Shown here piece after piece: positions 396-44,300 of a DNA stretch of 64,000 bases; position 1 is the first letter of the stretch, and every line of letters begins with the position of its first letter. A program made the position numbers and the translations under genes. The stretch comes from Atriophallophorus winterbourni (lineage: Eukaryota > Platyhelminthes > Trematoda > Plagiorchiida > Microphallidae). Where the stretch lies: positions 1 to 64,000 of the forward strand of contig JACCGJ010001780.1 in NCBI GenBank assembly GCA_013407085.1, in the 5' to 3' direction. The notes under the pieces were generated by a model, which did no database searches, had not been told where the DNA came from, and saw only the letters and a program-made list of their open reading frames with translations.

Positions 396-654
396 CATAG
401 TACAATATATTGCATAAATGCACAACCGTGCCAAGCACTAAGAGTTTTTAACATTTCTGCCAGATTATCACGTGATTTGTGCGGAGGCCACCCAGACGTA
501 CCGCGCATTGTTTCGTACGTCAAATGTGCTTTCAAATGTACCTTAAGCGAAAAAGTCGGCTCTAACCGATTCATTGAAAACGTTCTTTTCACGACAATGG
601 ATTCCAGATCAGTATGAAATATATCAAAATATCTACGCGCCTTAATTTTTACAG

Positions 655-1640: not shown

Positions 1641-2676
1641 GGTTAAATGTTCAGATATAATCACCAAAACTATTATCATGATGGCAGGTTTGTACGTACT
1701 TCGTTCACAGGCCCGGAGTCAAGCAACGTGTCGCATGAGCAGCTAGGCTGCTCAATGTCTCAAATAATGTTAGACCGTCTAATCTTCGATAAAAAGTAAT
1801 AAATGGTGACATGTTGATTGCGACCAATTCTCGGCTGCAGCTCAGTAGCATTGTTAACTGTGCATTTCAGAAAACGGCGTGTTTAAATGCTTCACAATAT
1901 CATAAGTCACTTCAGGTACTTCGTCGACCGGGTAGGATCTGAGTCAAATCCCTCCGCTATTCAACGAGAGCAGAAATCTACATATGTTGTGCAGTCCCTG
2001 GACCTACTTCTTGATGATACTCACAGACCGCCAAAGTGCATTTTCTCATCATGTACCCTCTTCATGATATACTTGTTGGCACCTCGTCTGTACTTGTGTA
2101 ATAATAATAATAATTTCCTCAACATCTTTGCCTTTGGCGTTTGATCGGTTACATTACGACTATCCTTTCGTGCCTCTGGTTCAGATCATCTTACTATCCC
2201 CGATTTCGCGTTGATTTTACAATGTTTTCTCCTCAGCCAAAGCGGTCTGGAAGTGTTACAGTTTGCGTCCGATTAACCCTTTGCGAAGCATTTTAACTGC
2301 CATCAAATACCAAAGTAGTAGTTGACAGGTTTTTTAAGCGCCTCATTGGATTAAGGTACATTTCCGTCAATCTGTCGGGAATTTTTGACGCCCAAACTAC
2401 ACAACGTTGGGCTGCTCGCTGTACTGCGATCAGTGGCTATCCGGTTGCACTGTAACAATCGCAGTACAAAACAAACAAGCTTCGGTGCTCACTTTATATT
2501 GATGTAACCAACATTCAACATTGACCAAAATCCCGATATTTGCACTTTATTTTGGTGTACCATCAAAGAATTTTCAAGACTAATTTGCGGTTAAATAAAA
2601 CGTAGATTATAAAGTCAATGCAACTCTAAATCACATTCAATGTCTCATCTTATCTGCTTTGATTTTAATTTTGTAG

Positions 2677-3197
2677 AAATTCTACATCCCATTCCATCCC
2701 GTCCCTGTGGTGTGCTCTCCAATGACGGTTCTTTACCGCAGCTCACTTGTGTGTCTCCTTCGGATATTCACGACAACAAGATCCTTACTCTCCCGACCAA
2801 CGTGACAATATCAACTTTTCGTCCAACTAACGCAGGCACGATGCTTGAACTTCCGGGACCAGAATCTACGAATCTTCCATTGAATATGATTTGTGAGCAC
2901 CTATCCGTCTATCCATGGTATCACGGAACTCTGAGCCGATTGAATGCAGCGAATTACGTTTTGGGACACGTGACTGATTTGGGCAACTCACAGACGCTCG
3001 TGAATCCCCCCGTCTCCGTTGGTGCGACGAAAACCGAGTCAGCCATATCCGCCTTCTCTTATCCAATGCCAGATGCCACCTCGCAAACAAGCAGTATTTC
3101 GCTAATTAGTGGACTGGATGGTACTTTTCTAGTGCGAGAAAGTGAAACAAAACAAGGAGAGTTCGTGCTGACGTTTGGATGTCATGGTAGAGCCAAG
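2677..3197 (+). CDS. SH2B: SH2B-family adaptor protein, exon with first half of SH2 domain
   Basis: This exon follows an acceptor ending TTTTGTAG and ends at AAG|GTGAAT, phase 0. After a Ser/Pro/Thr-rich linker it encodes the start of an SH2 domain: WYHGTLSR (alpha A), then the FLVRES phosphotyrosine-binding strand as GTFLVRESE, then GEFVLTF. The order and wording match the SH2 domain of SH2B1/SH2B2/SH2B3 (Lnk), adaptors that bind phosphotyrosines on JAK kinases and receptor tyrosine kinases at the membrane. The binding arginine of FLVRES is present. Unusually, about 45 Ser/Thr-rich residues separate alpha A from the FLVRES strand, where vertebrate SH2B proteins have only a few. The N-terminal dimerisation and PH regions are not in the window and probably lie upstream. 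Family assignment is firm; the exact paralogue is not meaningful in an invertebrate. Confidence 0.85.
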
Positions 3198-3513
3198 GTG
3201 AATAGGTTCTTCTATCAAGCACGATCTCTGATACCTCTTATCATTGTCATTATCAAAGACAGCTCTACCTTCAATTGATGATAAACTAAATAGGAAAGTC
3301 AGCTGCGACAGGAATGTGTCTCAAACCGCTTCTTGTTTTCGAATCCGATGTTCCTCATGTGGGTTTTGATACAAGCGAATTAACGATCAGAACCTTATTT
3401 TCCACTGATTGAAAACTAAATTTCTATATCCATCTTGGATTTTTCACAAATCCAAGGGAACACCTATAGAGTGGAATAAGACTCAAATGCTCTTCCTAAT
3501 TAAAACCGGTTTG

Positions 3514-14229: not shown

Positions 14230-16258
14230 CACTCAAATCTGCGTACTATGCCACCTCATTACACTGGCACTCTCGCTATTGTACCACTTTTGCTCGGTCT
14301 GCACGAAATTCAATACAAAATAAATTTACTATGCCACTCCCTGCTCTCGCTACTATGCCACTATTCTGTGACTATTTAAAAGTGCATTTTTGCGCACTTA
14401 ACGTATATAGTCAGCCAGTTTCAAGGTCAAAGACGCTATGTTTCTCCCTGGCGCCAGCTACAACAAGCTAATCACCTCACGCACAACGACAAGCCACTTT
14501 TCTACTCTTGCTTTAAGTATTGATATATAGACCCAAGAAAGCGCGCGCACAATCAGACACTCACAAGAGTAACATCATTATTTTTCAAACTATTCAGCTC
14601 ATAATGTCAGCTCAGAAACGCAAGCGAATTGACTTTACGCTGAAGGAGAAGCTCGAAATCACCGATGCTGCGAAGAATGAGTCTAATCAGTCCAATTTGG
14701 CGAGATAGATTAGAAAAAAATGGGGTGTCGAAGTTAAGAGAACCACCATCAAGGGCATTTTCAGCAAGACGGGTGCAATTGAAGCTGCAATCAAAGCTGT
14801 AGTTCTATCGAAGCGCATGAAGCTGACGCAGTCTCACGACCCGACGATTCAGGAGGGAGTGCTGATGTGGCTGAATCAAGCAAGAGGACTGAATATGCCT
14901 GTCAGCGTCGATTTGATCAAGGAGAAGGCGATGAAACTGGCCGAGCTGATGCACATCCCAGACTTCATGGCGAGCGACGGTTGAATAGACAGTTTCAAAA
15001 AGCGCAATCGCGTCACGTTGCAGACAGTGCAGGGCGGAGCTGGATGGTGGATTCCCAATCCATTATTGATTGGCAGCATCAGGTTCTCCGGCCTTACTCA
15101 GGCAGTTGTCTGCAGATGATGTCTTCAACCTGGACGAGACTGGACTCTTCTGACAAGTGCTTCCGAACAAGACCATGGCTTTTAGTGGAGAGCGGTGTAC
15201 TGGAGGTAAGAAGCAAGCAAAGGATTACTCTTCTGGTTGGGGCAAACATGAGCGGCAGCAAGCAATTTCCCCTTTTAGTGATCGCCAATTCCAAGAGACC
15301 CGTTTCTTCAAGAAGAACGAGATCCAGGTCACGTACAAGCCGAACTCGAAGGCTTGGATGACGGCGGAGATTTTGATGTAGATGTTGCGTACGTGGGACG
15401 GACGACTCGACTAGCGGGAACGCAAATTTCTGGTCTGTCTCAATAACTTTTCTGGCCACCCTTCCGAGCTCCAGCTGAACAACATCCAACAGGTCTTCTT
15501 TTCAACCAACACGACAGCCAATTCGCAACCAATGGATCAGGGAATCATAGAGAACTTCAAGCGTTACTATATGAAGCTGCTTCTATGCCGCCGGCTAGAG
15601 ACCATAGACGATCGCGGAAAGGAGTACAAGTTCACGTTGCTCGACGCTCTACACGTCTCCCGGTATGCTTGAGAGCAGGTCAGCAATTCGACAATCAGGA
15701 ACTGTTTCGCGAAAGCCAAGTTTATTAAAGAAGAAATCCGAACTGAGCCTCACGATGCGGAGCTGCTCCAGATCTGAAAAGCTCTGCCTGTCGAGAAAAA
15801 GATGTACGAGAACGAGGAGATCGAGCTTCCTGACTTTCTCGAAGCCGACGAACGCCTCGCGACTGGCAGGTCATTCACGCCGGAGGAGATTATGGAGGAG
15901 ATGCTGTGCAATGAGAAGCCGGTGGAAAGCGAAGACGAAGTGAACGTCGAGGAGAAGATCGTTCTTTTCGAGGGACCCCAGCGTGCTTGGATCACTGTTC
16001 GAAAGTTCATGCAGCAGACAAGCGAGAAGCCCAGTGTGATGCAACCGTGTGATCGGTTAGACAACTAGGTGAACGAGATCCGACGAAAAAAGATGCGTCA
16101 GCCGACGATTTTTGAGAGCTTTTGACTGATCGATTGAGCAAATAAATAATGGACTTGAGAAAATGAAGCCGCTTTTACAAACCCTCGTTACTATGCCACT
16201 CTCCACTATGCCACTCTTGCTCGGTCCCGACGGGTGGCATAGTACTTAGATTTGAGTT
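14230..16258 (+). mobile_element. pogo/Tigger-type DNA transposon with terminal inverted repeats and TA duplication
   Basis: The two ends are inverted repeats of about 26 bp: ACTCAAATCTGCGTACTATG at the left and, on the reverse strand, ACTCAAATCTAAGTACTATG at the right, each continuing CCACC. Both are flanked by TA (14228-14229 and 16259-16260), the target duplication of the Tc1/mariner-pogo superfamily. TACTATGCCACT-like submotifs recur inside both ends and may be transposase sites. The decayed transposase lies between. The element is richer in G+C than its surroundings. Confidence 0.85.
14604..15680 (+). pseudogene. pogo/Tigger-type (CENP-B-like) transposase, broken
   Basis: The frame begins with MSAQKRKRIDFTLKEKLEIT, a CENP-B-type helix-turn-helix, runs on through KKWGVEVKRTTIKGIFSKTG and a second DNA-binding region (VLMWLNQARGLNMPVSVDLI, MASDG, IDSFKKRN). 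The DDE nuclease shows FNLDETGLFWQVLPNKTMAF (first aspartate) and, near 15525-15570, SQPMDQGIIENFKRYYMKLL (second aspartate). In-frame stops at about 14706 and 14982 and at least two frameshifts break it. It cannot make a full transposase, so it is a fossil. An acidic C-terminal frame remains at 15802-16068. Confidence 0.8.
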
Positions 16259-18137: not shown

Positions 18138-18433
18138 TTTGAAATAGAATACCATTCCGAAACGCTAAAATCTCAACGAAAGCACAGGACCGGTTTCGTG
18201 GTTTTTGCCTCTCAGCAGCTATGCGTATCCGCTAGACGCTTCGCGTTTCGAACTAGTATTTGTGTAGACGGATGGCGCAATGCGAATCGAAGTTCTCGTC
18301 TACTTGCTACTTTATAAGTAGCTGGATGGACTAAACTAAGCCCCAACTGATCGGACAGCGTATTGCCGCGAGGGTTATTACAACCCCAGGACAGTTTGGA
18401 GTAGAATACCATTCCGAAACGCTAAAATCTCAC

Positions 18434-18488
18434 CGGAAGCACAGGACCGGTTTCGAGGTTTTTGCCTCTCATCAGCTATGCGTATCCG
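18434..18488 (-). ncRNA. Hammerhead ribozyme (type I), intact core, reverse-strand unit
   Basis: Reverse strand reads CTGATGA, stem II GAGG/CCTC, GAAA, then ACC/GGT as a minimal stem III, cleavage C, and CTGTGC pairing with GCATAG (one G-U). Same structure as the copy at 29456 but on the other strand, in the inverted part of the array. Confidence 0.75.
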
Positions 18489-19433
18489 CTGGAATCTTCG
18501 CGTTTCGAACTAGTATTTGTGTAGACGAATGGCGCAGAGCGAATCGAAGTTCTCGTCTACTAGCAACTTCAGCTACTTATAAAGTAGCAAGTAGACGAGA
18601 ACTTCGCTTCGCATTGCGCCATCCGTCTACACAAATACTAGTTCAAAACGCGGAGAGTCCAGCGGATACGCATAGCTGATGGGAGGCAAAAACCTCGAAA
18701 CCGGTCCTGTGCTTCCGGTGAGATTCTAGCGTTTCGAAATGGTATTCTATTTCAAACTATCCCGGGGTTGTAATAACCCTCGCGGCAATACGCCTTTTGA
18801 TCAGTTAGGGCTTAGTTTAGTCCATTCAGCTACTTATAAAGTAGCAAGTAGACGAGAACTTTGATTCGAATTGCGCCATTCGTCTACACAAATACTAGTT
18901 CGAAACGCGAAGCGTCTAGCGGATACGCATAGCTGCTGAGAGGCAAAAACCTTGAAACCGGACCTGTGCTTCCAGTGAGATTTTAGCGTTTCGGAATGGT
19001 ATTCTACTTCAAACTATTCTGGGGTTGCAATAACCATCGTGGCAATACGCCGTCCGATCAGTTGGGGCTCAGTTAAGTCCCTTCAGCTACTTATAAAGTA
19101 GCATGTAGAAGAAAAATTCGATTCGCATTGCGCCATCCGTCTGCACAAATACTAGTTCGAAACGCGAAGAGTCCAGCGGATGCGCATAGCTGATGGGAGG
19201 CAAAAACCTCGAAACCGGTCCTGTGCTTCCGGTGAGATTTTGGCGTTTCGGAATGGTATTCTACTTCAAACTTTCCCGAGGTTGTAATAACCCTTGCGGC
19301 AATACGCCTCTTGATCAGTTAGGGCTTAGTTAAGTCCCTTCAGCTACTTATAAAGTAGCAAGTAGACAAGAACTTCGATTCGCATTGCGCCATCCGTCTA
19401 CACAAATACTAGTTCGAAACGCGAAGAGTCCAG

Positions 19434-19488
19434 CGGATACGAATAGCTGATGAGAGGCAAAAACCTTGAAACCGATCCTGTGCTTCCG
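19434..19488 (+). ncRNA. Hammerhead ribozyme-like segment, core intact, stem III weakened
   Basis: CTGATGA and GAAA are present, but stem II ends CCTT (one G-U pair) and the site reads GATC in place of GGTC, costing a stem III pair. Confidence 0.5.
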
Positions 19489-20203
19489 GTGAGATTTTAG
19501 CATATCAAAATCGTATTCTACTTCAAACTATCCTGGAATTGTAAAAATCCTCGCGGCAATACGCCGTCCGATTAGTTGGAGCTTAGTTAAAACCCTTCAG
19601 CTACTTTTTAAGTAGCAAGTAGATGAGAACTTCGATTCGCATTGTGCCATCTGTCTACACAAATACTAGTTCGAAACGCGAAGAGTCCAGCGGATACGCA
19701 TAGATGATGGGAGGAAAAACGTCGAAATCGGTCCTGTGCTTCCGGTGAGATTCTAGCGTTTCGGAATGGTATTTTACTTCAAACTATCCTGGAGTTGTAA
19801 TAACCCTCTCGGCAATACGCCGTCTGATCAGTTGGGGCTTAGTTAAGTCCCTTCAGCTACTTATAAAGTAGCAAGTAGACAAGAAATTCGATTCGCATTG
19901 CGCCATCCGTCTACACAAATACTAGTTCGAAACGCAAAGAATCGAGCGGATACGCATAGCTGCTGAGAGGCAGAAACCTCGAAACCGGTCCTGTGCTTCC
20001 GGTGAGATTTAAGCGTTTCGGAATGGTATTTTACTTCAAACTATCCCGGAGTTGTGATAAACCTCTCGGCAATACGCCGTCTGATCAGTTGGGGCTTAGT
20101 TAAGTCCCTTCAGCTACTTATAAAATAGCAAGTAGACGAAAACTTCGATTCGCATTGCGCCATCCGTCTTCACAAATACTAGTTTGAAACGCGGAAAATC
20201 CAG

Positions 20204-20258
20204 CAGATACGCATAGCTGATGAGAGGCAAAAACCTCGAAACCGGTCCTGTGCTTCCG
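20204..20258 (+). ncRNA. Hammerhead ribozyme (type I), intact core
   Basis: CTGATGA at 20217, GAGG/CCTC stem II, GAAACCGGTC, and a full six-pair inner stem I. One mismatch in the outer part of stem I. Confidence 0.7.
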
Positions 20259-20932
20259 GTGAGATTCTAGCGTTTCGGAATGGTATTTTACTTCAAACTA
20301 TCCTGGAGTTGTAATAACCCTCTCGGCAATACGCCGTCTGATCAGTTGGGGCTTAGTTAAGTCCCTTCAGCTACTTATAAAGTAGCAAGTAGACAAGAAA
20401 TTCGATTCGCATTGCGCCATTCGTCTACACAAATACTAGTTCGAAACGCAAAGCGTCTAGCGGATACGCATAGCTTATGGGAGGCAGAAACCTCGAAACC
20501 AGTCGTGTGCTTCCGGTGAGATTTTATCGTTTCGGAATGGTATTCTACTTCAAACTATCCTGAGGTTGTAATAACCCTCGCGGCAATACGCCTTCCGATC
20601 AGTTGGAGCTTAGTTAAGTCCCTTTAGCTACTTATAAAGTAGCAAGTAGACGAGAACTCCGATTCGCATTGCGCCATCCGTCTACACAAATACTAGTTCG
20701 AAACGCGAAGCGTCTAGCGAATACGCATAGCTGCTGAGAGGCAGAAACCTTGAAACCGGTCCCGTGCTTCCCGTGAGATTTTAGCGTTTCGGAATGGTAT
20801 TTTACTTCAAACTATCCTGGGGTTGTAATAACTCTCGCGGCAATACGCCGTCCGATCAGTTGGGGCTTAGTTAAGTCCCTCCAGCTACTCATAAAGTAGT
20901 AAGTAGACGAGAACTCCGATTCGCATTGCGCC

Positions 20933-21932
20933 NNNNNNNNNNNNNNNNNNNNNNNNNNNNNNNNNNNNNNNNNNNNNNNNNNNNNNNNNNNNNNNNNNNN
21001 NNNNNNNNNNNNNNNNNNNNNNNNNNNNNNNNNNNNNNNNNNNNNNNNNNNNNNNNNNNNNNNNNNNNNNNNNNNNNNNNNNNNNNNNNNNNNNNNNNNN
21101 NNNNNNNNNNNNNNNNNNNNNNNNNNNNNNNNNNNNNNNNNNNNNNNNNNNNNNNNNNNNNNNNNNNNNNNNNNNNNNNNNNNNNNNNNNNNNNNNNNNN
21201 NNNNNNNNNNNNNNNNNNNNNNNNNNNNNNNNNNNNNNNNNNNNNNNNNNNNNNNNNNNNNNNNNNNNNNNNNNNNNNNNNNNNNNNNNNNNNNNNNNNN
21301 NNNNNNNNNNNNNNNNNNNNNNNNNNNNNNNNNNNNNNNNNNNNNNNNNNNNNNNNNNNNNNNNNNNNNNNNNNNNNNNNNNNNNNNNNNNNNNNNNNNN
21401 NNNNNNNNNNNNNNNNNNNNNNNNNNNNNNNNNNNNNNNNNNNNNNNNNNNNNNNNNNNNNNNNNNNNNNNNNNNNNNNNNNNNNNNNNNNNNNNNNNNN
21501 NNNNNNNNNNNNNNNNNNNNNNNNNNNNNNNNNNNNNNNNNNNNNNNNNNNNNNNNNNNNNNNNNNNNNNNNNNNNNNNNNNNNNNNNNNNNNNNNNNNN
21601 NNNNNNNNNNNNNNNNNNNNNNNNNNNNNNNNNNNNNNNNNNNNNNNNNNNNNNNNNNNNNNNNNNNNNNNNNNNNNNNNNNNNNNNNNNNNNNNNNNNN
21701 NNNNNNNNNNNNNNNNNNNNNNNNNNNNNNNNNNNNNNNNNNNNNNNNNNNNNNNNNNNNNNNNNNNNNNNNNNNNNNNNNNNNNNNNNNNNNNNNNNNN
21801 NNNNNNNNNNNNNNNNNNNNNNNNNNNNNNNNNNNNNNNNNNNNNNNNNNNNNNNNNNNNNNNNNNNNNNNNNNNNNNNNNNNNNNNNNNNNNNNNNNNN
21901 NNNNNNNNNNNNNNNNNNNNNNNNNNNNNNNN
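20933..21932. other. Assembly gap of exactly 1000 N inside the satellite
   Basis: The gap starts just after GCATTGCGCC of one unit and ends just before CGATTAGCATTGCGCC of another. The round number suggests a placeholder. Long frames of X here are artefacts. Confidence 0.99.
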
Positions 21933-23018
21933 CGATTAGCATTGCGCCATCCGTCTACACAAATACTAGTTCGAAACGCGAAGCGTCTAGCGGATATGCA
22001 TAGCTGCTGAGAGTCGGAAACCTGGAAACCGGTCCTGTGCTTGCGGTGAAATTTTAGCGTTTCGGAATGGTATTCTACTTCAAACTATCCTGGGGTTGTA
22101 GAAACCCTCGCGGCAATACGCCGTCCGATTAGTTGGGGCTTAGTTTGGTCCCTCCAGATTCTCATGATGTAGCAAGTGGACGAGAACTTCGATTCGCATT
22201 GCGCCATCCGTTTACACAAATACTAGTTCAAAACGCAAAGAGTCCAGCGGATACGCATAGCTTATGGGAGGCAGAAACCTCGAAACCAGTCGTGTGCTTC
22301 CGGTGAGATTTTATCGTTTCGGAATGGTATTCTACTTCAAACTATCCTGGGGTTTTGATAATCTTCGTGGCAATACGCCGTCCGATCAGTTGGGGCTTAG
22401 TTTAGTCCCTTTAGCTACTTATAAAGTAGCAAGTAGACGAGAACTTCGATTCGCATTGCGCCATCCGTCATCACAAATACTAGTTCGAAACGCGAAGAGT
22501 CCAGCAGATACGCATAGCTGCTGAGAGGCAGAAACCTGGAAACCGGTCCTGTGCTTCCGGTGAGATTTAAGCGTTTCGGAATGGTATTCTACTTCAAAGT
22601 ATCCTGAGGTTGTAATAACCCTCGCGGCAATACGCCGTCCGATCAGTTGGGGCTTAGTTAAGTCCCTTCAGCTACTTATAAAGTAGCAAGTAGACGAGAA
22701 CTTCGATTCGCATTGCGCCATCCGTCTACACAAATACTAGTTCGAAACGCGAAGCGTCTAGCGGATACGCATAACTGCTGAGAGGCAAAAACCTCGAAAC
22801 CGGTCCTGGGCTTCCGGTGAGATTTTAGCATATCGAAATCGTATTCTACTTCAAACTATCCTGGGATTGTAAAAACCCTCGCGGCAGTACGCCGTCCGAT
22901 CAGTTGGGGCTTAGTTAAGTCTCTTCAGCTACTTATAGAGTAGCAAGTAGACGAAAACTTCGATTCGCATTGCGCCATCCGTCTTCACAAATACTAGTTC
23001 GAAACGCGAAGAGTCCAG

Positions 23019-23073
23019 CAGATACGCATAACTGATGAGAGGCAAAAACCTCGAAACCGGTCTTGTGCTTCCA
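23019..23073 (+). ncRNA. Hammerhead ribozyme (type I), intact core, stem I variant
   Basis: CTGATGA at 23032 with perfect stem II. The nucleotide before the core is A (usually G) and the first base after the cleavage C is T (usually C), so the closing pair of stem I is A-U instead of G-C. Confidence 0.65.
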
Positions 23074-23531
23074 GTGAGAGTTTAGCGTTTCGGAACGATA
23101 TTCTACTTCAAACTATCCTGGGATTGTAAAAACCCTCGGGGCAATACGCCGTCTGATCAGTTGGGGCTTAGTTAAGTCCCTCCAGCTACTTATAAATTAG
23201 CTAGTAGACAAGAACTTTGGTAAGCATCGCGCCATCCGTCTACACAAATACTAGTTCGAAACGCGAAGCGTCTAGCGGATACGCATAGCTGCTGAGAGGC
23301 AGAAACCTCGAAACCGGTCCTGTGCTTCCGGTGAGATTTTAGCGTTTCCGAATGGTATTCTACTTCAAACTATCCTGGGATTGTAAAACCCTCGCGGCAA
23401 TAAGCCGTCCGATAAGTTGGAGTTTAGTTTAGTCCCTTCAGCTACTTATAAAGTAGCAAGTAGACGAAAACTTCGATTCGCTTTGCGCCATCCGTCTTCA
23501 CAAACACTAGTTCGAAACGCGAAGTGTCCAG

Positions 23532-23586
23532 CAGATACGCATAGCTGATGAGAGGCAAAAACTCCGAAACCGGTCCTGTGCTTCCG
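23532..23586 (+). ncRNA. Hammerhead ribozyme-like segment with weakened stem II
   Basis: CTGATGA at 23545 and GAAACCGGTC are intact, but the 3' arm of stem II is CTCC where CCTC is expected. Confidence 0.5.
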
Positions 23587-25075
23587 GTGAGATTTTAACG
23601 TTTTAAAATGGTATTCTACTTCAAACTATCATCAGGTTGTAATAATCCTCGCGGCAATACGCCGTCCGATCAGTTGGGGCTTAGTTAAGTCCCTTTAGCT
23701 ACTTATAAAGTAGCAAGTAGACGAGGAATTCGATTCGCATTGCGCCATCTGTCTACACAAATACTAGTTCGAAACGCGAAGTGTCCAGCGGATACGCATA
23801 GCTGATGGGAAGCAAAAACCTCGAAACCGGTCTTGTGCTCCCGGTGAGAATTTAGCGTTTCGAAATGGTATTCTACTTCAAACTATTCTGGGGTTGTAAT
23901 AACCCTCGCGGCAATACGCTGTCCGATCAGTTGGGGCTTAGTTAAGTCCCTCCAGCTACTTATAAAGTAGCTAGTAGACGAGAAACAATCGATTCGCATT
24001 GCGCCATCCGTCATCACAAATACTAGTTCGAAACGCGAAGAGTCCAGCAGATACGCATAGCTGCTGAGAGGCAGAAACCTGGAAACCGGTCCTGTGCTTC
24101 CGGTGAGATTTAAGCGTTTCGGAATGGTATTCTACTTCAAAGTATCCTGAGGTTGTAATAAACCTCGCGGCAATACGCCGTCCGATCAGTTGGGGCTTAG
24201 TTAAGTCCCTTCAGCTTCTCATGAAGTAGCAAGTAGACGAGAACTTCGATTCGCATTGCGCCATCCGTCTACACAAATACTAGTTCAAAACGCAAAGAGT
24301 CCAGCGGATACGCATAGCTTATGGGAGGCAGAAACCTCGAAACCAGTCGTGTGCTTCCGGTGAGATTTTATCGTTTCGGAATGGTATTCTACTTCAAACT
24401 ATCCTGGGGTTTTGATAATCTTCGTGGCAATACGCCGTCCGATCAGTTGGGGCTTAGTTTAGTCCCTTTAGCTACTTATAAAGTAGCAAGTAGACGAAAA
24501 CTTCGATTCGCATTGCGCCATCCGTCTTCACAAATACTAGTTCGAAACGCGAAGCGTCTAGCGGATACGCATAGCTTATGGTAGGCAGAAACCTCGAAAC
24601 CAGTCGTGTGCTTCCGGTGAGATTTTATCGTTTCGGAATGGTATTCTACTTCAAACTATCCTGAGGTTGTAATAACCCTCGCGGCAATACGCCTTCCGAT
24701 CAGTTGGAGCTTAGTTAAGTCCCTTTAGCTACTTATAAAGTAGCAAGTAGACGAGAACTCCGATTCGCATTGCGCCATCCGTCTACACAAATACTAGTTC
24801 GAAACGCGAAGCGTCTAGCGAATACGCATAGCTGCTGAGAGGCAGAAACCTTGAAACCGGTCCCGTGCTTCCCGTGAGATTTTAGCGTTTCGGAATGGTA
24901 TTTTACTTCAAACTATCCTGGGGTTGTAATAACTCTCGCGGCAATACGCCGTCCGATCAGTTGGGGCTTAGTTAAGTCCCTCCAGCTACTCATAAAGTAG
25001 TAAGTAGACGAGAACTCCGATTCGCATTGCGCCATCCGTCTACACAAATACTAGTTCAAAACGAAAAGAGTCCAG

Positions 25076-25130
25076 CGGATAGGCATAGCTGATGAGCGGC
25101 AAAAACCTCGAAACCGGTCCTGTGCTTCCA
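25076..25130 (+). ncRNA. Hammerhead ribozyme-like segment with one stem II mismatch
   Basis: CTGATGA at 25089 followed by GCGG where GAGG is expected; GAAACCGGTC and stem I are intact. Confidence 0.5.
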
Positions 25131-26616
25131 GTGAGATTTTAGCGTTTCGGAATGGTATTCTATTTCAAACTATCCGAGGTTGTAATAACCCTCGCGGTTA
25201 TACTCCTTTTGATCAGTTGGGGCTTAGTTTAGTCCATTCAGCTACTTATAAATTAGCAAGTAGACGAGAACTTCGATTAGCATTGCGCCATCCGTCTACA
25301 CAAATACTAGTTCGAAACGCGAAGCGTCTAGCGGATATGCATAGCTGCTGAGAGTCGGAAACCTGGAAACCGGTCCTGTGCTTGCGGTGAAATTTTAGCG
25401 TTTCGGAATGGTATTCTACTTCAAACTATCCTGGGGTTGTAGAAACCCTCGCGGCAATACGCCGTCCGATTAGTTGGGGCTTAGTTTGGTCCCTCCAGAT
25501 TCTCATGATGTAGCAAGTGGACGAGAACTTCGATTCGCATTGCGCCATCCGTTTACACAAATACTAGTTCAAAACGCAAAGAGTCCAGCGGATACGCATA
25601 GCTTATGGGAGGCAGAAACCTCGAAACCAGTCGTGTGCTTCCGGTGAGATTTTATCGTTTCGGAATGGTATTCTACTTCAAACTATCCTGGGGTTTTGAT
25701 AATCTTCGTGGCAATACGCCGTCCGATCAGTTGGGGCTTAGTTTAGTCCCTTTAGCTACTTATAAAGTAGCAAGTAGACGAGAACTTCGATTCGCATTGC
25801 GCCATCCGTCATCACAAATACTAGTTCGAAACGCGAAGAGTCCAGCAGATACGCATAGCTGCTGAGAGGCAGAAACCTGGAAACCGGTCCTGTGCTTCCG
25901 GTGAGATTTAAGCGTTTCGGAATGGTATTCTACTTCAAAGTATCCTGAGGTTGTAATAAACCTCGCGGCAATACGCCGTCCGATCAGTTGGGGCTTAGTT
26001 AAGTCCCTTCAGCTTCTCATGAAGTAGCAAGTAGACGAGAACTTCGATTCGCATTGCGCCATCCGTCTACACAAATACTAGTTCAAAACGCAAAGAGTCC
26101 AGCGGATACGCATAGCTTATGGGAGGCAGAAACCTCGAAACCAGTCGTGTGCTTCCGGTGAGATTTTATCGTTTAGGAATGGTATTCTACTTCAAACTAT
26201 CCTGGGGTTTTGATAATCTTCGTGGCAATACGCCGTCCGATCAGTTGGGGCTTAGTTTAGTCCCTTCAGCTACTTATAAAGTAGCAAGTAGACGAGAACT
26301 CCGATTCGCATTGCGCCATCCGTCTACACAAATACTAGTTCGAAACGCGAAGCGTCTAGCGGATACGCATAGCTGCTGAGAGGCAGAAACCTTGAAACCG
26401 GTCCTGTGCTTCCCGTGAGATTTTCGCGTTTCGGAATGGTATTTTACTTCAAACTATCCTGGGGTTGTAATAACTCTCGCGGCAATACGCCGTCCGATCA
26501 GTTGGGGCTTAGTTAAGTCCCTCCAGCTACTCATAAAGTAGTAAGTAGACGAGAACTCCGATTCGCATTGCGCCATCCGTCTACACAAATACTAGTTCAA
26601 AACGAAAAGAGTCCAG

Positions 26617-26671
26617 CGGATAGGCATAGCTGATGAGAGGCAAAAACCTCGAAACCGGTCCTGTGCTTCCA
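26617..26671 (+). ncRNA. Hammerhead ribozyme (type I), intact core
   Basis: CTGATGA at 26630, GAGG/CCTC, GAAACCGGTC and the six-pair inner stem I all present. Confidence 0.7.
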
Positions 26672-28941
26672 GTGAGATTTTAGCGTTTCGGAATGGTATT
26701 CTATTTCAAACTATCCGAGGTTGTAATAACCCTCGCGGTTATACTCCTTTTGATCAGTTGGGGCTTAGTTTAGTCCATTCAGCTACTGATAAAGTAGCAG
26801 TAGACGAGAAACTTCGATTAGCATTGCCGCCATCCGTCTACACCAAATACTAGTCGAAACGCGAAGCGTCTAGCGGATATGCAAGCGGCTGAGAGTCGGA
26901 AACCTGGAAAAACGGTCTCCTGTGATTGCGGTGGTGGATTTGTGAGATTTTAGCGTTTCGGAATGGTATTCTACTTTAAACTATCCTGGGATTGTAAAAA
27001 CCCTCGCGTCAATACGCCGTCCGATCAGTTGGGGCTTAGTTTAGTCCCTCCAGCTTCTCATGAAGTAGCAAGTAGACGAGAACATCGATTCGCATTGCGC
27101 CATCCGTCTACACAAATACTAGTTCAAAACGCAAAGAGTCCAGCGGATACGCATAGCTTATGGGAGGCAGAAACCTCGAAACCAGTCGTGTGCTTCCGGT
27201 GAGATTTTATCGTTTAGGAATGGTATTCTACTTCAAACTATCCTGGGGTTTTGATAATCTTCGTGGCAATACGCCGTCCGATCAGTTGAGGCTTAGTTTA
27301 GTCCCTTCAGCTACTTATAAAGTAGCAAGTAGACGAGAACTTCGATTCGCATTGCGCCATCCGTCTTCACAAATACTAGTTCGAAACGCGAAGAGTCCAG
27401 CAGATACGCATAGCTGCTGAGAGGCAGAAACCTGGAAACCGGTCCTGTGCTTCCAGGGAGATTTAAGCGTTTCGGAATGGTATTCTACTTCAAAGTATCC
27501 TGAGGTTGTAATAACCCTCGCGGCAATACGTCGTCCAATCAGTTGGGGCTTAGTTAAGTCCCTTCAGCTACTTATAAAGTAGCAAGTAGACGAGAACTTC
27601 GATTAGCATTGCGCCATCCGTCTACACAAATACTAGTTCGAAACGCGAAGCGTCTAGCGGATACGCATAGCTGCTGAGAGGCAGAAACCTCGAAACCGGT
27701 CCTGTGCTTCCGGTGAGATTTTAGCGTTTCCGAATGGTATTCTACTTCAAACTATCCTGGGATTGTAAAACCCTCGCGGCAATAAGCCGTCCGATAAGTT
27801 GGAGTTTAGTTTAGTCCCTTCAGCTACTTATAAAGTAGCAAGTAGACGAAAACTTCGATTCGCATTGCGCCATCCGTCTTCACAAACACTAGTTCGAAAC
27901 GCGAAGTGTCCAGCAGATACGCATAGCTAAAGAGAGGCAAAAACTCCGAAACCGGTCCTGTGCTTCCGGTGAGATTTAAGCGTTTTAAAATGGTATTCTA
28001 CTTCAAACTATCATCAGGTTGTAATAACCCTCGCGGCAATACGCCGTCCGATCAGTTGGGGCTTAGTTAAGTCCCTTTAGCTACTTATAAAGTAGCAAGT
28101 AGACAAGAAATTCGATTCGCATTGCGCCATCTGTCTACACAAATACTAGTTCGAAACGCGAAGAGTCCAGCAGATACGCATAGCTGATGAGAGGCAAAAA
28201 CCTCCAAACCGGTCTTGTGCTCTCAGTGAGATTTTAGCGTTTCGGAATGGTATTTTACTTCAAACTATCCTGAAGTTGTAATAACCCTCTCGGCAATACG
28301 CCGTCTGATCAGTTGGGTCTTAGTTAAGTCCCTCCAGCTGCTTAAAAAGTAGCAAGTAGAGGAAAACTTCGATTCGCATTGCGCCATCCGTCTTCACAAA
28401 TACTAGTTCGAAACGCGGAGTGTCAAGCGGATACGCATAGCTGCTGAGAGGCAGAAACCTCGAAACCGGTCCTGTGCTTCCGGTGAGATTTTAGCGTTTC
28501 GGAATGGTATTCTACTTTAAACTATCCTGGGATTGTAAAAACCCTCGCGTCAATACGCCGTCCGATCAGTTGGGGCTTAGTTTAGTCCCTCCAGCTTCTC
28601 ATGAAGTAGCAAGTAGACGAGAACATCGATTCGCATTGCGCCATCCGTCTACACAAATACTAGTTCAAAACGCAAAGAGTCCAGCGGATACGCATAGCTT
28701 ATGGGAGGCAGAAACCTCGAAACCAGTCGTGTGCTTCCGGTGAGATTTTATTGTTTAGGAATGGTATTCTACTTCAAACTATCCTGGGGTTTTGATAATC
28801 TTCGTGGCAATACGCCGTCCGATCAGTTGGGGCTTAGTTTAGTCCCTTCAGCTACTTATAAAGTAGCAAGTAGACGAGAACTTCGATTCGCATTGCGCCA
28901 TCCGTCTTCCCAAATACTAGTTCTAAAGGCGAAGAGTCCAA

Positions 28942-28996
28942 GAGATACGCATAGCTGATGAGAGGCAAAAACCTCGAAACCGGTCCTGTGCTTCCG
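28942..28996 (+). ncRNA. Hammerhead ribozyme (type I), intact core
   Basis: CTGATGA at 28955, GAGG/CCTC, GAAACCGGTC and the inner stem I are intact; the outer stem I is weaker. Confidence 0.68.
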
Positions 28997-29455
28997 TTGA
29001 GATTTAAGCGTTTCAAAATGGTATTCTACTTCAAAGTATCCTGAGGTTGTAATAACCCTCGCGGCAATACGCCGTCCAATCAGTTGGGGCTTAGTTAAGT
29101 CCCTTCAGCTACTTATAAAGTAGCAAGTAGACGAGAAATTCGATTTGCATTGCGCCATCTGTCTACACAAATACTAGTTCGAAACGCGAAGTGTCCAGCG
29201 GATACGCATAGCTGATGGGAAGCAAAAACCTTGAAACCGGTCTTGTGCTCCCGGTGAGAATTTAGCGTTTCGGAATGGTATTCTACTTCAAACTATTCTG
29301 GGGTTGTTATAACCCTCGCGGCAATACGCCGTTCGATCAGTTGGGGCTAAGTTTATTCCCTTCAGCTTCTTATAAAGTAGCAAGTAGACGATAACTTCGA
29401 TTCACATTGCGCCATCCGTCTACACAAATACTAGTTCGGAACGCTAAGAGTCCAG

Positions 29456-29510
29456 CGGATACGCATAGCTGATGAGAGGCGAAAACCTCGAAACCGGTCC
29501 TGTGCTTCCG
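29456..29510 (+). ncRNA. Hammerhead ribozyme (type I), best copy
   Basis: Core CTGATGA at 29469-29475; stem II GAGG (29476-29479) with CCTC (29486-29489) and a six-base loop; GAAA at 29490-29493; very short stem III ACC/GGT (29493-29498); cleavage expected after C29499. Stem I pairs 29500-29505 with 29463-29468 (five Watson-Crick and one G-U), then a small internal loop, then 29507-29510 with 29456-29459. All conserved core positions of the hammerhead family are present. A stem III this short usually needs dimers to act, as tandem units would provide. Confidence 0.8.
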
Positions 29511-29655
29511 GTGAGATTTTAGCGTTTCGGAATGGTATTCTACTTCAAACTATCTTGGGGTTGTAATAACTCTTGCGGCAATACGCTTTTCGATCAGTTG
29601 GGACTTAGTTTAGTCCCTTCAGCTTCTCATAAAGTAGCAAGTAGACGAAAACTTA

Positions 29656-30590
29656 TGTTCGCATATATTATTAATATTACGTCATTAAGTTTATTGTTTT
29701 TCTTATTCGCTTTCATTTCATGAACAAATTTGCTACTTGGTATCTAAAACAAAAATATAGGTTTTCTTCAAATATTCATCTCTCCACCGCAGTGCAAGCT
29801 GAAGCTTTACAAGTTACATACACTACCTCTATCAGATTACGGCAATATTATACCTGGCAACATTACTTGGTCTGATAGTTATGATTTAGAAGGCATCCAA
29901 CGTGCTTTCACACCACTTCTTTCACATCTAGTACCACCTATTCGGATAAACATTCATATAAAAAAAGATTGTATTGGAACCAATATGGTTTTAAAGACAT
30001 CGACATTTTTATTTACAATTAGATTTGAAGTAGTCTGAAGCATATAATCCCCGCCATAAAAACAAAATAAGTATACCGAAAATTCACAATGGGTAACGAA
30101 AATATTTCTTTATTTCTGAATATTCTGAACATTATAGATAATTTATAATTATACGGCATTAAAAGCTTCTGCTTCATTTAGTTTAAATTTTTTAAGAGCC
30201 ATATAACTTTTTTCTTCAGAATTTACTTTTCAAAATTATTGGAATGCAACAAAATACACTTTCGAAATTCTTGAAATGATGATACCAGTCAAATCTCCGG
30301 GAGTCGATGAAGTGAATTCCTAATTCGCATATGTCTTTTCGAAATTGTATGCTGAACATTATTCATGAATAAACAGTGCGGTTTAGAAGCTGCCAAAACT
30401 GTAATTAACCCATTTCCTATATTTTACAAATTTACTGTTATTTTGAGAAAAAATATGAATTTTCATTAATTATTGTTTCAATAATATATCCATTCTTATG
30501 TTTTATGCAAGCTACCATGTGTACCAATGTTACACAACTATTCTGGTTGCTAAGGCCAAAAATGTAATTATGCTTGACCTAACCATTTGT
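29656..30590. other. AT-rich intergenic DNA
   Basis: No gene or repeat recognised between the satellite and the LINE tail at 30600. Confidence 0.5.
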
Positions 30591-31129: not shown

Positions 31130-32461
31130 GTGGTTATTTATTTAGAGACGAGAAGAAGTTTTAATATGGTAACTCTATGTAATAAATTGTGTTGTATTGA
31201 ATTGAATAACCAAACCAAGAATGTAAGTGAGAACAAAAAATCTTGTGCAACCTGCCAGTTAGAATATTTAGATCACATAACCAGTTCACTAGACCAAGGA
31301 CTATCAGTGATTATTGTATTCCCAGACATAAGCAAGGCTTTCGATCGGGTTCCACATACGCTACTCCTATTGGAGTTATCATATTTAGGTATTCATGGGC
31401 CTTCATTAAGCTGGTTTCATTCATTTCTGTCTGATCGCACCTTTTCAGTTAGCGTTAACGGTGTTAGTTCACCTAATCAGCCGATTCCAAGTGGCGTAAT
31501 TCAGGGCAGTGTTCTAGGCCCCCTTCTTTTTCTCATCTATGCTAATGATCTGCAAAGTGTTGTGAACCACTCTAAACTCTTTATTTTCGCTGATGACATA
31601 AAAGTCGTCCTATCATTTCCACCTAATGAAATGTCACAAACTCTGATATCCCTTAACACTGATCTTGCATCTCTATCAAGCTGGGGCGCACAATGGGGAT
31701 TAGAATTTTCGGCTCCTAAGACACACTATATGGGATTACGCTGCTTAATCCCCTGTGACACACTTACATTAAATGGCTCAACCATAACTCCTTCTGCAGA
31801 AGTTAGGGATCTCGGATTTAGGTATTCCTCTTCTCTGAACTTTAATGAGCAAGCAAGACATCTCCTCACGAGAGCACGACAAAACTTTGGTTTAATTAAC
31901 CATAAAATCCTCTTACGTGAAAGTAAAATTGCACTATATAAAATGAAGGTCCTGCCAATTCTTGATTATTGTAATATCATATATTCCCACATGGGGAGGC
32001 GTGATTCTTTTCTCTTAGAGAGACTTCAACGTAATTTCACCAAAATAACTTTGGGTTATTCTAACCCTTTGCCTTATCATGAAAGGTGTAATTTGCTGAG
32101 TGTCGAACCACTATGGCTACGCAGAATTCGTCTGAATCTGCTTCTTTTCTTCCGAATCATTACTCAACAGCGAGTTAAGCTTCAGTCTGGCATGCGCTTT
32201 CGCGATTATATTCAATATGATCTGCGTAATCGAACAAGGCTATTGAATATCCCTTTGTCTCGCGCTAAAGTTAGACGTAACTTCTTCTTAATTAGATATG
32301 CACAACTTTGGAATTCCCTTCCTCTTCTTTTCCGTATATGCACATCTACAGGAAAATTTAAAACTCTTGTAGAAACTCTTACCGTTCACTCACTATCCCA
32401 AATCCTTAAGATAAACTCTTCTCTAGATATTCTATACTCTCATGGGATCCCAGGTTTCTAA
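31130..32461 (+). pseudogene. CR1-like reverse transcriptase, C-terminal 443 codons without a stop
   Basis: RT motif A is VFPDISKAFDRVPH, motif B IPSGVIQGSVLGPLLFLIYA, motif C FADDIK (FADD, as in CR1/Jockey relatives). The thumb and C-terminal domains run on to a TAA after HGIPGF. The catalytic aspartates are kept and the frame is unbroken, which points to a fairly young insertion. The fingers domain and the endonuclease are missing, so it cannot act alone. Usual ORF2 length is about twice this. Confidence 0.85.
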
Positions 32462-41300: not shown

Positions 41301-44300
41301 TCTTACCCTCAAAATGGTGTCCAATGGCGGTATTGTAGATATGTTGGCGTGTTTGATTAATCTGTCAAGTGAACTGGCGAGAAAAGCTGGTTATGATGTG
41401 TGACATTGAAAGCCGCAAGGAAGCTGTCATGCTGATGTCGCTCTACTGGTTCACAACACGTGTATGCATGTTTGATTTGAGGTGTAGGCAACTCATCCCA
41501 GTGCCTAATCTTCGATATGTTCAGTAGCTTTTTAAGTCCCACCATTCCCCGTCTTTTTTGAATTTTACTTTTACTTAAATTGAGGCTTAAATCTACCATT
41601 CTGAAGAAACGTTTGACCCATATATGTATAAAATCTTGCGCATGGAACCAAGCAAAGTGCCACACTCGCATAGCCTGTACATGGGTTTTGATAATGTCAG
41701 GCTGTTCATTTCTAGGTAGATGGAAGAAAGGGATAGAAGCAAAAAAACTCGAGTGCGTTTCTGTTTGCAGCTCGTTATCGGTGGTCAATCAGTTATCAGG
41801 TTTTTCTCTAAACAGTTAGCAAGTACTGCACGATCGCATATCTTTGCTACTCAGCTCATTATCCGAACGTTTTTTGCTTTATGATTTGCGATGGCGATAG
41901 TGCAACAGTTCAATGTCCTGTCGTATCCTTGCCAACTTTTCGACCTCCTGCAGCGATTTCTCTTGTATACATGGCTGTAAAATTATGTATCATCTCCATC
42001 CTGTTCACGTAACACCGTGGTACATTGCATGTCTCCGTAGTTTCGCTTGGTGTTTTGGTTTAACCAATTTTCATATTGGGTTTATCTTTTGAACAATCAA
42101 TTCTGTCACTGTTCTTGCATTGTTGTTTAATCGGTCTCTTATAATTGTTCTACGAATAGCAGCACAAGCGTTCACAATCAGAATTACAACACGATGGACC
42201 CCTTTCGTGTTGTGGAACACACGACAGACGGAGATCGGAACAACCTTTCACTTCATCGAGAGAAAGGTTAGTACGACCATTGATGCTTCCACTTCAATGG
42301 ATTGACCCTTCAATTTGAAGAAGAAAAATTTATTAAGGACATCTTCATTCGAAAATACTCAAAATTTCAGCTTAAGGCTTATGTTAATACCAAAATCTTA
42401 ACAAAATGTGCGTGAAAATATTTGCTGAAAATATACGAGATAAATTCGACTTTAATTGTATCAACTCATCTAAAAACTCCGTAGCAGTCGCTCGCGCTTG
42501 TCTCTCACACGAGCCAGAGTGCGCTTTGTATCTTTCCTTCTTTAACATGGTATTTGAAAATATTCGAGACCGATCCGGAGTCCATACTCATGAAAATAAA
42601 GTTTGCAATGAATCGGTTATAGCAAGTTTTCGGTAACGTTTCGCTTCTGAACTCAAAAGCTTCGTCAGACCAAGAGTGTCGGTACGAACAGTGTTCAGGT
42701 TAAAGTAATGTGTTGCTCACATCCCCATCCTGTTCAGGTTAAATGGCATTTTATTGACCAATCTTATGTTCTCTAAGATAGACAGACGAGATCAAGACAA
42801 TTGATCACACCCCCTAAATGCCGTGTTAATCCCTAAATTGTTTATTTAGTGTGCAGGTGCGAACAGCGTCCGCTGACGCACTGGTTACGTAATCAATGTG
42901 CACATTAGGCGTTATGCACGTTAATCGTTATCCGCTGCAAAACCGAACGCCAGATTGTTGAGATATCCACCACATCCACCTTGTTCACCGCATTCGCCCC
43001 AGCCTTTGTTATTTCAACTGCCTCGGCGTGAAGTCTTTCCTTATAAGATTTCACACCCCGTCTTATCGCTTCCACGTTATCAAGATCTACGCTGTGTCCA
43101 GCGTCTAGCACGTGTTCAGCTAGAGCAGAATCCCGAATCAGTGATTGCTATTCACAGGGATTGCGGGGTTGTTTTCATGCTCGTTTCCTATGTTCGTTTA
43201 CCCTGGTGAAAAGTTCTCTAGACGTTTGCCTAATGTAAACACCCGCGCAACCCTTGCATTCGATTTTGTAGATGCAGTTTGTCGCACAACCTAAAGGAGT
43301 CTTATATTTGAGATGCATTAATACGGAGCGGAGATTTCTACCTGCCTTATATATTACTCTAATACCTGCGTTATTCAAGATTCGACTTATTCCTTTGGAG
43401 GCGCTTTCGACATACGGTAGAGATACCGTAGCTCGCCAAACTTTTTCCGTTTTCGGTTGCGGAGGTTTAACTCGGTTCAATTGGCGCTCAATTAAGCTCT
43501 TGGGGTAACCATGATTTGCAAGTCGACGACTGACTTCTTGATGAGCTCGTCTCTTATCGGCATCATCGCTGCAGAGGCGGTCAACCTTGTAGAATAGCGA
43601 TTTTGCTACGGACTAAAATACCCTTCCAGGATGCGCAGATGTGAATCTCAAAATGACATCTGTGTCGATTGGCTTACGATGTACCGTGGTTCTTATCTTT
43701 TGCGCGAGACAGTCCAAGAACGGAAGTGTCCCTGGTTGCGATTAGTTGTTAAGAATCCCCCTCTTGACCAGGTAAACAATCGCGTTCGATCGATAACGAG
43801 AAAAATCAACAATGAAAGTAGTGTCAATGAAAACTAACATATCATCCATAGCGTTTTATTTTAGATAAATCGATTTTGTATATCTGGCATCGCCTTCAGT
43901 TTTTTCATCCAGACAAATTGCGCTTCTTTTCCTTTATCTTATCCCGCGGTGTTTCTCTTCGTCTAGTTACAATAGCCCCAGAGATCTCGGTCGATCGCTG
44001 TGATCTCGAGCCTCCCGTCGAACACTCGAACAATTCACATTCCATCGAAACGGTTCCCGCTTCCCAGCCTCCGTTGTCTGGCTCTACCACGTCGATTCTC
44101 AGTCGCACTTTGGGTTTCCTCCCACGTGTAAGTTGAAAGTCGTTCTGCAACGAAAGCTTTTCATGCATTCTTTTGATTCGCGAAATCCTTGTGTATTCCT
44201 TTTCCTGTAATCAATTTGCTGAAGCGTTACGGAATGCTGTTTTGCTCAACCCTTTACGCATCCCCTCGTTTATAGTGTAACCAAAATCTCTTTCTTGGAC

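What the first reader, a model, noticed from the sequence alone, without database searches (positions are those of the whole stretch)
18138..29655. An 11.5-kb satellite whose 257-bp unit encodes a type I hammerhead ribozyme
Seen: roughly 40 tandem units, several with CTGATGA, a GAGG/CCTC stem, GAAA, a minimal ACC/GGT stem III, a GUC cleavage site and a stem I with an internal loop (best copy 29456-29510). Known: schistosome Sm-alpha satellites carry such ribozymes, with short stem III and loop contacts. Inferred: transcripts of the array could cut themselves into ~257-nt monomers. The sequence is not one I recognise, so this may be a new family in another fluke lineage.
Basis: partly seen in the sequence, partly recalled or inferred. 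Interest (0 to 1): 0.88.

Follow-up and report, generated by a model that had tools for sequence, protein, structure and literature searches.

The report
Hammerhead-ribozyme retroelement array in flatworm
This repeat array carries a self-cutting RNA motif (a hammerhead ribozyme) of a known kind, and the way its copies are inserted across the genome looks like the work of Penelope-like retroelements, which had been suspected of moving such repeats.

Summary
The array is real: about 41 units of 257 bp at window 18138-29664, the first 432 bp inverted, with a 1,000-N gap inside. The units encode a type I hammerhead; Rfam's best model is RF02275 (E 1e-8 in the window), below its gathering score. 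Stem III is a loop-less palindrome (ACCGGU), so dimer action is expected. Only 9 of 39 cores are intact here, 164 of 191 at other loci: the window holds a decayed copy of a dispersed family.

The new part is how copies end. Of 39 de-duplicated 3' ends, 35 fall at two fixed unit positions (about +51 and +165 after the cut), none at the cut; 5' ends look random; flanking direct repeats are frequent. A second hammerhead family and an abundant Penelope-like element (PLE) in the same genome also end mainly at two fixed distances past their hammerheads. Head-to-head copies mostly end at the fixed sites on both sides.

Best reading: a metazoan retrozyme, a new member of a known kind, moved by a PLE that primes on both target strands. 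The mitochondrial code is of the flatworm/echinoderm type; fluke is not proven. No RNA was tested.

The parts
18138..18569 (-). Inverted part of the array: about 1.7 units on the minus strand; outer (3') end at unit position 50
18567..20932 (+). 9.2 tandem units on the plus strand, head-to-head with the inverted part
20933..21932 (.). 1,000-N assembly gap inside the array
21933..29664 (+). 30 tandem units; 3' end at unit position 165, followed by unique AT-rich DNA
20199..20270 (+). Best-scoring hammerhead copy of the window (43.9 bits to RF02275)
18422..18493 (-). Intact hammerhead copy in the inverted part (42.5 bits)
29451..29522 (+).
   Evidence: the cut position follows from the hammerhead rule, not from an assay
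42550..43733 (-). 5'-truncated copy of the Penelope-like element, ending 85 nt after the PLE hammerhead cut; holds the 144-aa C-terminal frame 43175-43609
560..631 (+). Short Penelope-like fragment ending 84 nt after the PLE hammerhead cut

Best explanation
The 257-bp unit is the genomic form of a non-autonomous hammerhead retroelement (a metazoan, non-LTR retrozyme), and the window array is an old, large, mostly ribozyme-dead copy of it. Multi-unit RNA, uncut at some or all of its hammerheads, is used as template by the reverse transcriptase of a Penelope-like element abundant in the same genome. Synthesis does not begin at an RNA end. It begins inside the RNA at one of two fixed places downstream of the hammerhead, about 51 or 165 nt after the cut. 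Either target strand can be primed; when both are, the two cDNAs meet head-to-head, as at the left edge of the window array. Synthesis stops at random, giving random 5' ends and variable unit numbers. Shown: the motif, the clustered 3' ends, scattered 5' ends, flanking direct repeats, inverted configuration, and a PLE with its own hammerhead and clustered ends. Inferred: RNA cleavage, dimer action, PLE agency, template form. The confidence given is for a retrozyme moved by a PLE; the multi-unit template alone I hold at about 0.5.
For: Hammerhead: RF02275 matches down to E 1e-8 in the window and 5e-10 outside; core and stem II (3 of 4 pairs or more) intact in 173 of 230 sampled units. Ends: 39 de-duplicated 3' ends, 20 at unit positions 44-56 and 15 at 154-172 (uniform expectation 2.0 and 2.9; P 3e-16 and 5e-8), none within 6 nt of the cut; 37 5' ends, 20 of them at inversion junctions, fit a uniform spread (KS p 0.86). 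Matching repeats of 7 nt or more, allowing 8 nt of slack into the element, flank 10 of 25 elements against 1.7% of shuffled flank pairs. In 6 of 8 head-to-head loci with both outer ends visible, one end is the +51 type and the other the +165 type. PLE: 9,149 candidate places, 150 scored; 2,753-bp tandem units; RVT_1 E 6e-9; minimal hammerhead near its frame start. PLE copies end +83..+96 after their cut in 11 of 20 fetched loci and +43..+51 in 5 of 20, plus +84 and +85 in the window. A second, tRNA-headed hammerhead family ends at +80..+87 in 14 of 27 copies and +96..+107 in 9 of 27. In print: a purified PLE cuts and extends both strands, starts internally at two sites, and used unprocessed RNA in vitro (PMC11167929, parts 1-2 read).
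Against: No RNA data or assay. The unconstrained minimum-energy fold of the hammerhead segment (-26.5) is not the hammerhead; forced into it the energy is -17.1, and the program's own best two-strand fold is another duplex. Only one of the two end sites (+51) agrees with a PLE site (+43..+51); +165 has no PLE counterpart, and one agreement could be chance. 4 of 20 PLE loci ended elsewhere (+2, +18, +22, +28), one of the five at +43..+51 (L086) lies at the edge of the fetched stretch, and two short PLE-like matches (window 57692-57770, L037) end at +22 and +24. The unit and the PLE share no alignable sequence. 15 of 25 elements, the window array among them, showed no repeat of 7 nt; two of the ten that did (L029, L036) are one locus. 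One head-to-head locus has an outer end at 200 (L035). The published PLE's sites are adjacent (30-40 nt), not 115 nt apart. Loci were best matches to one window unit, not a random sample.
Confidence: 0.7

Rival explanations
1. Canonical retrozyme cycle: the RNA cuts itself to monomers, a ligase closes 257-nt circles, and reverse transcription around one circle gives the tandem copies.
For: This is the model proposed for animal retrozymes (PMC7229834). Internal 3' ends and inserts of any unit number fit a circle. Cores are mostly intact outside the window.
Against: Units inside one short insertion should be identical at birth. None of 42 comparisons in 15 short insertions was identical, and in 26 of 42 the two units differ more from each other than either does from its nearest unit at another locus; full units differ as much within as between loci (0.075 v 0.077) and only 63 of 218 have their nearest neighbour at the same locus. 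The minimum over many other units is biased low and age blurs this, so it is not a disproof.
Confidence: 0.3
2. Ordinary satellite: head-to-tail units spread by unequal crossing-over, the ribozyme being a relic.
For: The window array re-uses a few unit types: of eight CTTATGG units, three share one identical hammerhead region and two another. Its core sites are less conserved than the rest: 21% of 38 units all-consensus against 52% for random site sets.
Against: Clustered 3' ends, scattered 5' ends, flanking repeats and 1.4-unit dispersed copies do not follow from crossing-over. It may explain later growth of the window array.
Confidence: 0.1
3. Mobilised by a LINE, as SINEs usually are, the head-to-head copies being twin-priming products.
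For: A non-LTR-like reverse transcriptase frame lies just right of the array (31130-32458, RVT_1 E 1.6e-18). LINE twin priming makes inversions (recalled).
Against: No poly(A) tail at the ends listed; one locus (L056) has a GTTT run starting about 13 nt beyond its end. The inverted segment also ends outwardly at a fixed site, which twin priming does not require (inference). No LINE 3' end was compared.
Confidence: 0.12
4. Template jumping: the enzyme copies cut linear monomers end to end, joining different monomers at the cut site.
For: Would explain unlike neighbours within one insertion; collinearity with other arrays is weak, 13 of 180 pairs against 7.1 of 173 for random partners.
Against: No excess of insertions or deletions at the 257|1 junction (6 events in a 7-nt window, mean over the unit 6.6); clean jumps would leave none.
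Confidence: 0.15

Closest known systems
Metazoan non-LTR retrozymes with type I hammerheads (PMC7229834: abstract, passages and discussion section seen)
   Same: 170-400-nt tandem unit, type I hammerhead, GC below 50%, flanking repeats at insertions, no coding capacity seen
   Different: No RNA or circle shown here; the clustered internal 3' ends and two-sided priming are added here
Schistosome alpha elements (Sm-alpha, Sj-alpha)
   Same: Type I hammerhead, SINE-like and satellite-like (PMC8490949 passages); family B here has the tRNA-like head that I recall for these elements
   Different: Sequences not compared (none fetched); family A keeps only a B-box-like motif
Amphibian hammerhead repeats (newt, axolotl Amex1; PMC7229834 and PMC6155905 passages)
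   Same: Single closing pair with a palindromic tetraloop (A-U and CCGG here) in stem III, hence dimer action expected
   Different: Unit 257 bp against 330-350 bp; different phylum
Rfam RF02275 Hammerhead_HH9 (an amniote intronic hammerhead; recalled)
   Same: Best-scoring model; same CAAAAA loop II in the best copy and UAC in the stem I internal loop (alignment)
   Different: Stem III shorter by five model positions; below gathering score; a repeat instead of a single intronic copy
Penelope-like elements with minimal hammerheads (Poseidon of Anolis, PMC11167929: main text parts 1-2 of 4 read)
   Same: Fixed internal 3' ends past the hammerhead, tandem units, both target strands used
   Different: The unit encodes no protein; its sites are 115 nt apart, not 30-40

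Membership tests
Type I hammerhead ribozyme | Conserved core CUGANGA...GAAA...NUH with stems I and II, open at stem I | tested here: met
   173 of 230 units intact in core and stem II; stems I and II drawn on the consensus
Type I hammerhead ribozyme | Rfam gathering score | tested here: not met
   Window best 43.9 against 52; best in five other loci 49.7. E-values 1e-8 and 5e-10; the alignment lacks the stem III loop
Type I hammerhead ribozyme | Hammerhead as predicted fold | tested here: inconclusive
   Free folding prefers another structure, -26.5 against -17.1 forced; the forced dimer core gives -30.5. Tertiary contacts are not modelled
Type I hammerhead ribozyme | Self-cleavage at the predicted site | not testable with these tools
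   needs RNA
Metazoan non-LTR retrozyme | Small non-coding tandem unit of about 170-400 bp with type I hammerhead | tested here: met
   257 bp
Metazoan non-LTR retrozyme | Dispersed insertions with target-site duplications | tested here: met
   10 of 25 elements with matching repeats of 7 nt or more (L029 and L036 are one locus), shuffled 1.7%
Metazoan non-LTR retrozyme | Expressed as linear and circular RNA | not testable with these tools
   no reads held
Metazoan non-LTR retrozyme | Units of one insertion descend from one circle | tested here: inconclusive
   leans against: 0 of 42 comparisons identical, 26 of 42 less alike than to other loci
Schistosome alpha element | tRNA-like RNA polymerase III promoter before the hammerhead (recalled) | tested here: inconclusive
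   B-box-like GTTCGAAAC 23 nt before the stem I GGATAC (24 nt in the family B copy L069); no A box by pattern
Penelope-like element | Reverse transcriptase and GIY-YIG in one frame | tested here: not met
   The 257-bp unit has no such frame. The partner L070 has RVT_1 (E 6e-9) and a GIY-YIG match under its curated cut-off (E 0.012, 16.4 v 22.6 bits). The array is not a PLE; it only ends like one

The most novel reading that the evidence does not exclude
Hammerhead repeats of animals are parasites of Penelope-like elements: the hammerhead fold marks where the enzyme docks, synthesis starts at set distances downstream on uncut multi-unit RNA, and both target strands are primed, so the ribozyme's role in spreading is landmark or length control more than monomer production.
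Probability: 0.3. Interest if true: 0.82.

Novelty: new member of a known kind. Interest (0 to 1): 0.6.

Why it matters
Which enzyme moves animal hammerhead repeats is not settled in the papers whose passages I saw: LINEs or PLEs are named, with PLEs a strong candidate because they share hammerheads and tandem form and co-occur (PMC7229834 discussion; PMC7761336; PMC11722881). This genome holds a PLE and two hammerhead families whose insertion ends can be read and compared. The clustered end positions turn the question into a direct in vitro test: give the PLE protein the unit RNA and see whether it starts at +51 and +165. It also bears on why such ribozymes are kept, and on how a mobile element turns into a satellite once its ribozyme decays.

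Tried and rejected
Rfam gathering search of the window gave nothing. The four miRNA-model hits at 18521-18629 are the head-to-head junction of the array, not miRNAs. Pfam, PDB and protein-database searches with the window's PLE fragment alone were empty; the longer frame of L070 was needed. ARAGORN, run with the bacterial code, found no tRNA in 12 loci. A DNA search for PLE ends returned 40 scored of 3,577 candidates, nearly all full-length, and was no use for ends. A pseudoknot between the two end sites (46-49 with 155-158) looked compensatory at two pairs, but unrelated positions covary as strongly and the pair 48-156 holds in only 68 of 106 units, so it is not claimed. A whole-unit consensus fold shows double changes at only 7 pairs and is not claimed as evidence. 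Families A and B: the full alignment scores 52 against a shuffled mean of 28 and maximum of 58 in 300; outside the hammerhead and B box nothing is significant (p 0.28 upstream, 0.92 downstream). Core conservation outside the window is only suggestive: 0.849 of 172 units all-consensus against 0.63 for random sites, 7% of random sets and 17 of 178 shifted patterns as high. A paper search with badly chosen terms was swamped. Viral contigs hold no exact match to one hammerhead pattern.

Rows left out: L032, L036, L062, L063 and L064 were treated as duplicates of other loci; duplicate 3' ends were removed by flank similarity, but its 25 elements still hold L029 and L036. In the Fisher test I grouped ends by hand: 33, 39 and 40 were counted as the +51 type and the end at 200 was left out. 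The family B ends include near-duplicate loci (L016 and L017, L067 and L068).
Full report
OBSERVATION. A 257-bp tandem repeat occupies 18138-29664. TRF reports 9.2 copies at 18567-20932 and 30.0 at 21933-29654. BLAST adds 1.7 units in the opposite orientation at 18138-18569. A run of 1,000 N (20933-21932) interrupts it. I numbered the unit from the first base after the predicted hammerhead cut, GGTC|CTGTGC; the hammerhead then spans about 206-257 and 1-22.

THE RIBOZYME. No Rfam family reaches its gathering score in the window. With E-values, 27 of 31 listed matches are RF02275 Hammerhead_HH9, best 43.9 bits, E 1.1e-8. Among five other loci of the family the best copy reaches 49.7 bits, still under the cut-off of 52. 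The part of the model that the unit lacks is the stem III loop: GAA-ACCGGU-C leaves a palindrome with no loop. Closing a single A-U pair over CCGG is unfavourable (-5.1 kcal/mol against -11.0 without it), while two copies paired through ACCGGU/ACCGGU give -30.5. Against this, free folding of the segment prefers a structure that is not the hammerhead (-26.5; -17.1 when forced), and free two-strand folding gives another duplex; these programs do not model tertiary contacts. A single closing pair with a palindromic tetraloop is described for amphibian repeats that act as dimers (PMC7229834, passages). In one window copy (23032) the pair at the base of stem I has changed from G-C to A-U, a single compensatory case.

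STATE OF THE WINDOW ARRAY. 9 of 39 window units have an intact core and stem II (at least 3 of 4 pairs), against 164 of 191 in the other loci sampled. In the window the 11 core sites are all-consensus in 21% of 38 units, while random sets of 11 other sites average 52%, and 175 of 178 shifted copies of the same spacing do at least as well. Few original mutations seem to lie behind this, since types such as CTGCTGA and CTTATGG recur.

DISPERSAL. The genome search scored 40 of 645 first-look candidates and counts 221 matches; the printed part of the list names 38 contigs of the 537-Mb genome. I fetched a stretch from each of the 37 other than the window's (L028-L064). They are best matches to one window unit, not a random sample. 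After removing duplicates, 39 3' ends were available: 20 at unit positions 44-56, 15 at 154-172, and 33, 39, 40 and 200 outside; none within 6 nt of the cut. The end at 33 (L030) seems to carry an internal deletion before the usual end (my reading). The 37 5' ends, 20 of them at inversion junctions, fit a uniform spread (KS p 0.86) and show no excess near the cut (3 within 10 nt, 2.9 expected). Matching repeats of 7 nt or more, up to 17, flank 10 of 25 elements, against 1.7% in shuffled pairs; the match was allowed to reach 8 nt into the element, and L029 and L036 are one locus. The window array has none.

HEAD-TO-HEAD COPIES. Ten loci including the window have divergent units. In eight both outer ends are visible: six have one end near 50 (33 in L030) and the other near 165, one has 165 and 170, one has 51 and 200. 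The +165 site is used more in such loci (10 of 17 ends, the end at 200 left out) than in single-orientation ones (5 of 21), Fisher p 0.046; the grouping was by hand.

THE PARTNER. A 144-aa frame at 43175-43609 (minus) looked to me, from memory, like the end of a Penelope-like protein; no database search with it alone found anything. In this genome it has 9,149 candidate places (150 scored, frames up to 878 aa), three on contig C7100 spaced 2,753 bp apart. [quoted passage not shown] telomerase only at E 0.35), and a minimal hammerhead, CUGACGA-stem-GAAACGUU|ACCAA, near the frame start, which I read by eye and Rfam does not report. PLE 3' ends: in 20 loci, 11 at +83..+96 after that cut, 5 at +43..+51 (one, L086, at the edge of its stretch), 4 elsewhere; in the window +84 and +85, while two short PLE-like matches end at +22 and +24.

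A SECOND HAMMERHEAD FAMILY. Searching the genome with RF02275 and RF00163 listed 29 matches (58 of 42,357 candidates scored) and 32 (74 of 96,317); 27 of the 32 exceed the Hammerhead_1 cut-off, and 14 control genomes gave none in either search. I read 12 RF02275 loci and five RF00163 loci. The 12 show no BLAST match to the 257-bp unit at E 1e-3. All 17 hold hammerheads of one family (27 copies), most with a tRNA-like head before the hammerhead and stem III ACUCGAGU, again palindromic. By homology between loci, 14 of 27 copies end at +80..+87 after the cut, 9 at +96..+107, four elsewhere (+19, +74, +75, +115); near-duplicate loci are included. Seven of the 17 loci hold copies in both orientations.

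READING. Clustered internal 3' ends, two alternatives, both strands primed and tandem units are what a purified PLE from the anole shows: it cuts and extends both strands and starts at two internal sites, which match the ends of genomic copies, and unprocessed RNA was the dominant substrate (PMC11167929, main text parts 1 and 2). From the distances printed there I infer a start about 85-92 nt past its hammerhead cut. The passages I saw name PLEs as a candidate for moving retrozymes on grounds of shared hammerheads, tandem form and co-occurrence (PMC7229834 discussion; PMC7761336 and PMC11722881 passages). My searches for a paper showing PLE-type ends in retrozymes showed none in their listings; the library lacks most subscription journals, and the 2014 paper on PLE hammerheads is not held.

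TEMPLATE FORM. Apart from a 51-nt fragment in L057, each insertion has a segment longer than one unit and so runs through the cut site; a cut linear monomer was not the template by itself. Neighbouring units within an insertion are unlike: 0 of 42 comparisons in 15 short insertions are identical, and in 26 of 42 the two differ more from each other than either does from its nearest unit elsewhere; within- and between-locus divergence of full units are 0.075 and 0.077. This favours multi-unit RNA or template jumping over one circle, but age and choice-of-minimum bias weaken it.

ORGANISM. In cox1 of contig C6618, by my reading of one alignment, AAA faces asparagine at 4 of 7 places (lysine at one), AGA/AGG faces serine at 4 of 7, and TGA faces tryptophan. 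Reading AAA as asparagine and AGR as serine is the echinoderm/flatworm type (NCBI tables 9, 14 or 21, not told apart here). A flatworm is likely on this and on the schistosome-like families; a fluke is not shown.

VERDICT. An animal retrozyme: a new member of a known kind, with the window copy largely dead. The value lies in the end map, which makes the PLE hypothesis testable.

Noticed in passing
window 18138-29664: Ribozyme core sites are less conserved than nearly all other site sets in this one array (21% all-consensus against 52% for random sites), while other large arrays keep theirs mostly intact. Whether dead ribozymes help arrays grow is unexplained.
   Followed up: partly
L016-L027, L065-L069: Second hammerhead family: tRNA-like head, stem III ACUCGAGU, partly above the Rfam Hammerhead_1 cut-off, in 7 of 17 loci in both orientations.
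   Followed up: partly
window 31130-32458: Reverse transcriptase frame (RVT_1, E 1.6e-18) just right of the array.
   Followed up: no
window 2613-3275 and 56039-56587: Host gene exons flank the region: an SH2-domain exon (E 8e-9; SH2B-like from memory) and a Mediator subunit 13 C-terminal domain (E 1e-23).
   Followed up: no
unit positions 46-54 and 157-169: Many of the most variable positions of the unit lie at the two 3' end sites; subtypes differ at both patches together.
   Followed up: partly
window 14783-15358: Frame with a sub-threshold match to a DDE transposase (E 5e-4, 20.1 v 22 bits).
   Followed up: no
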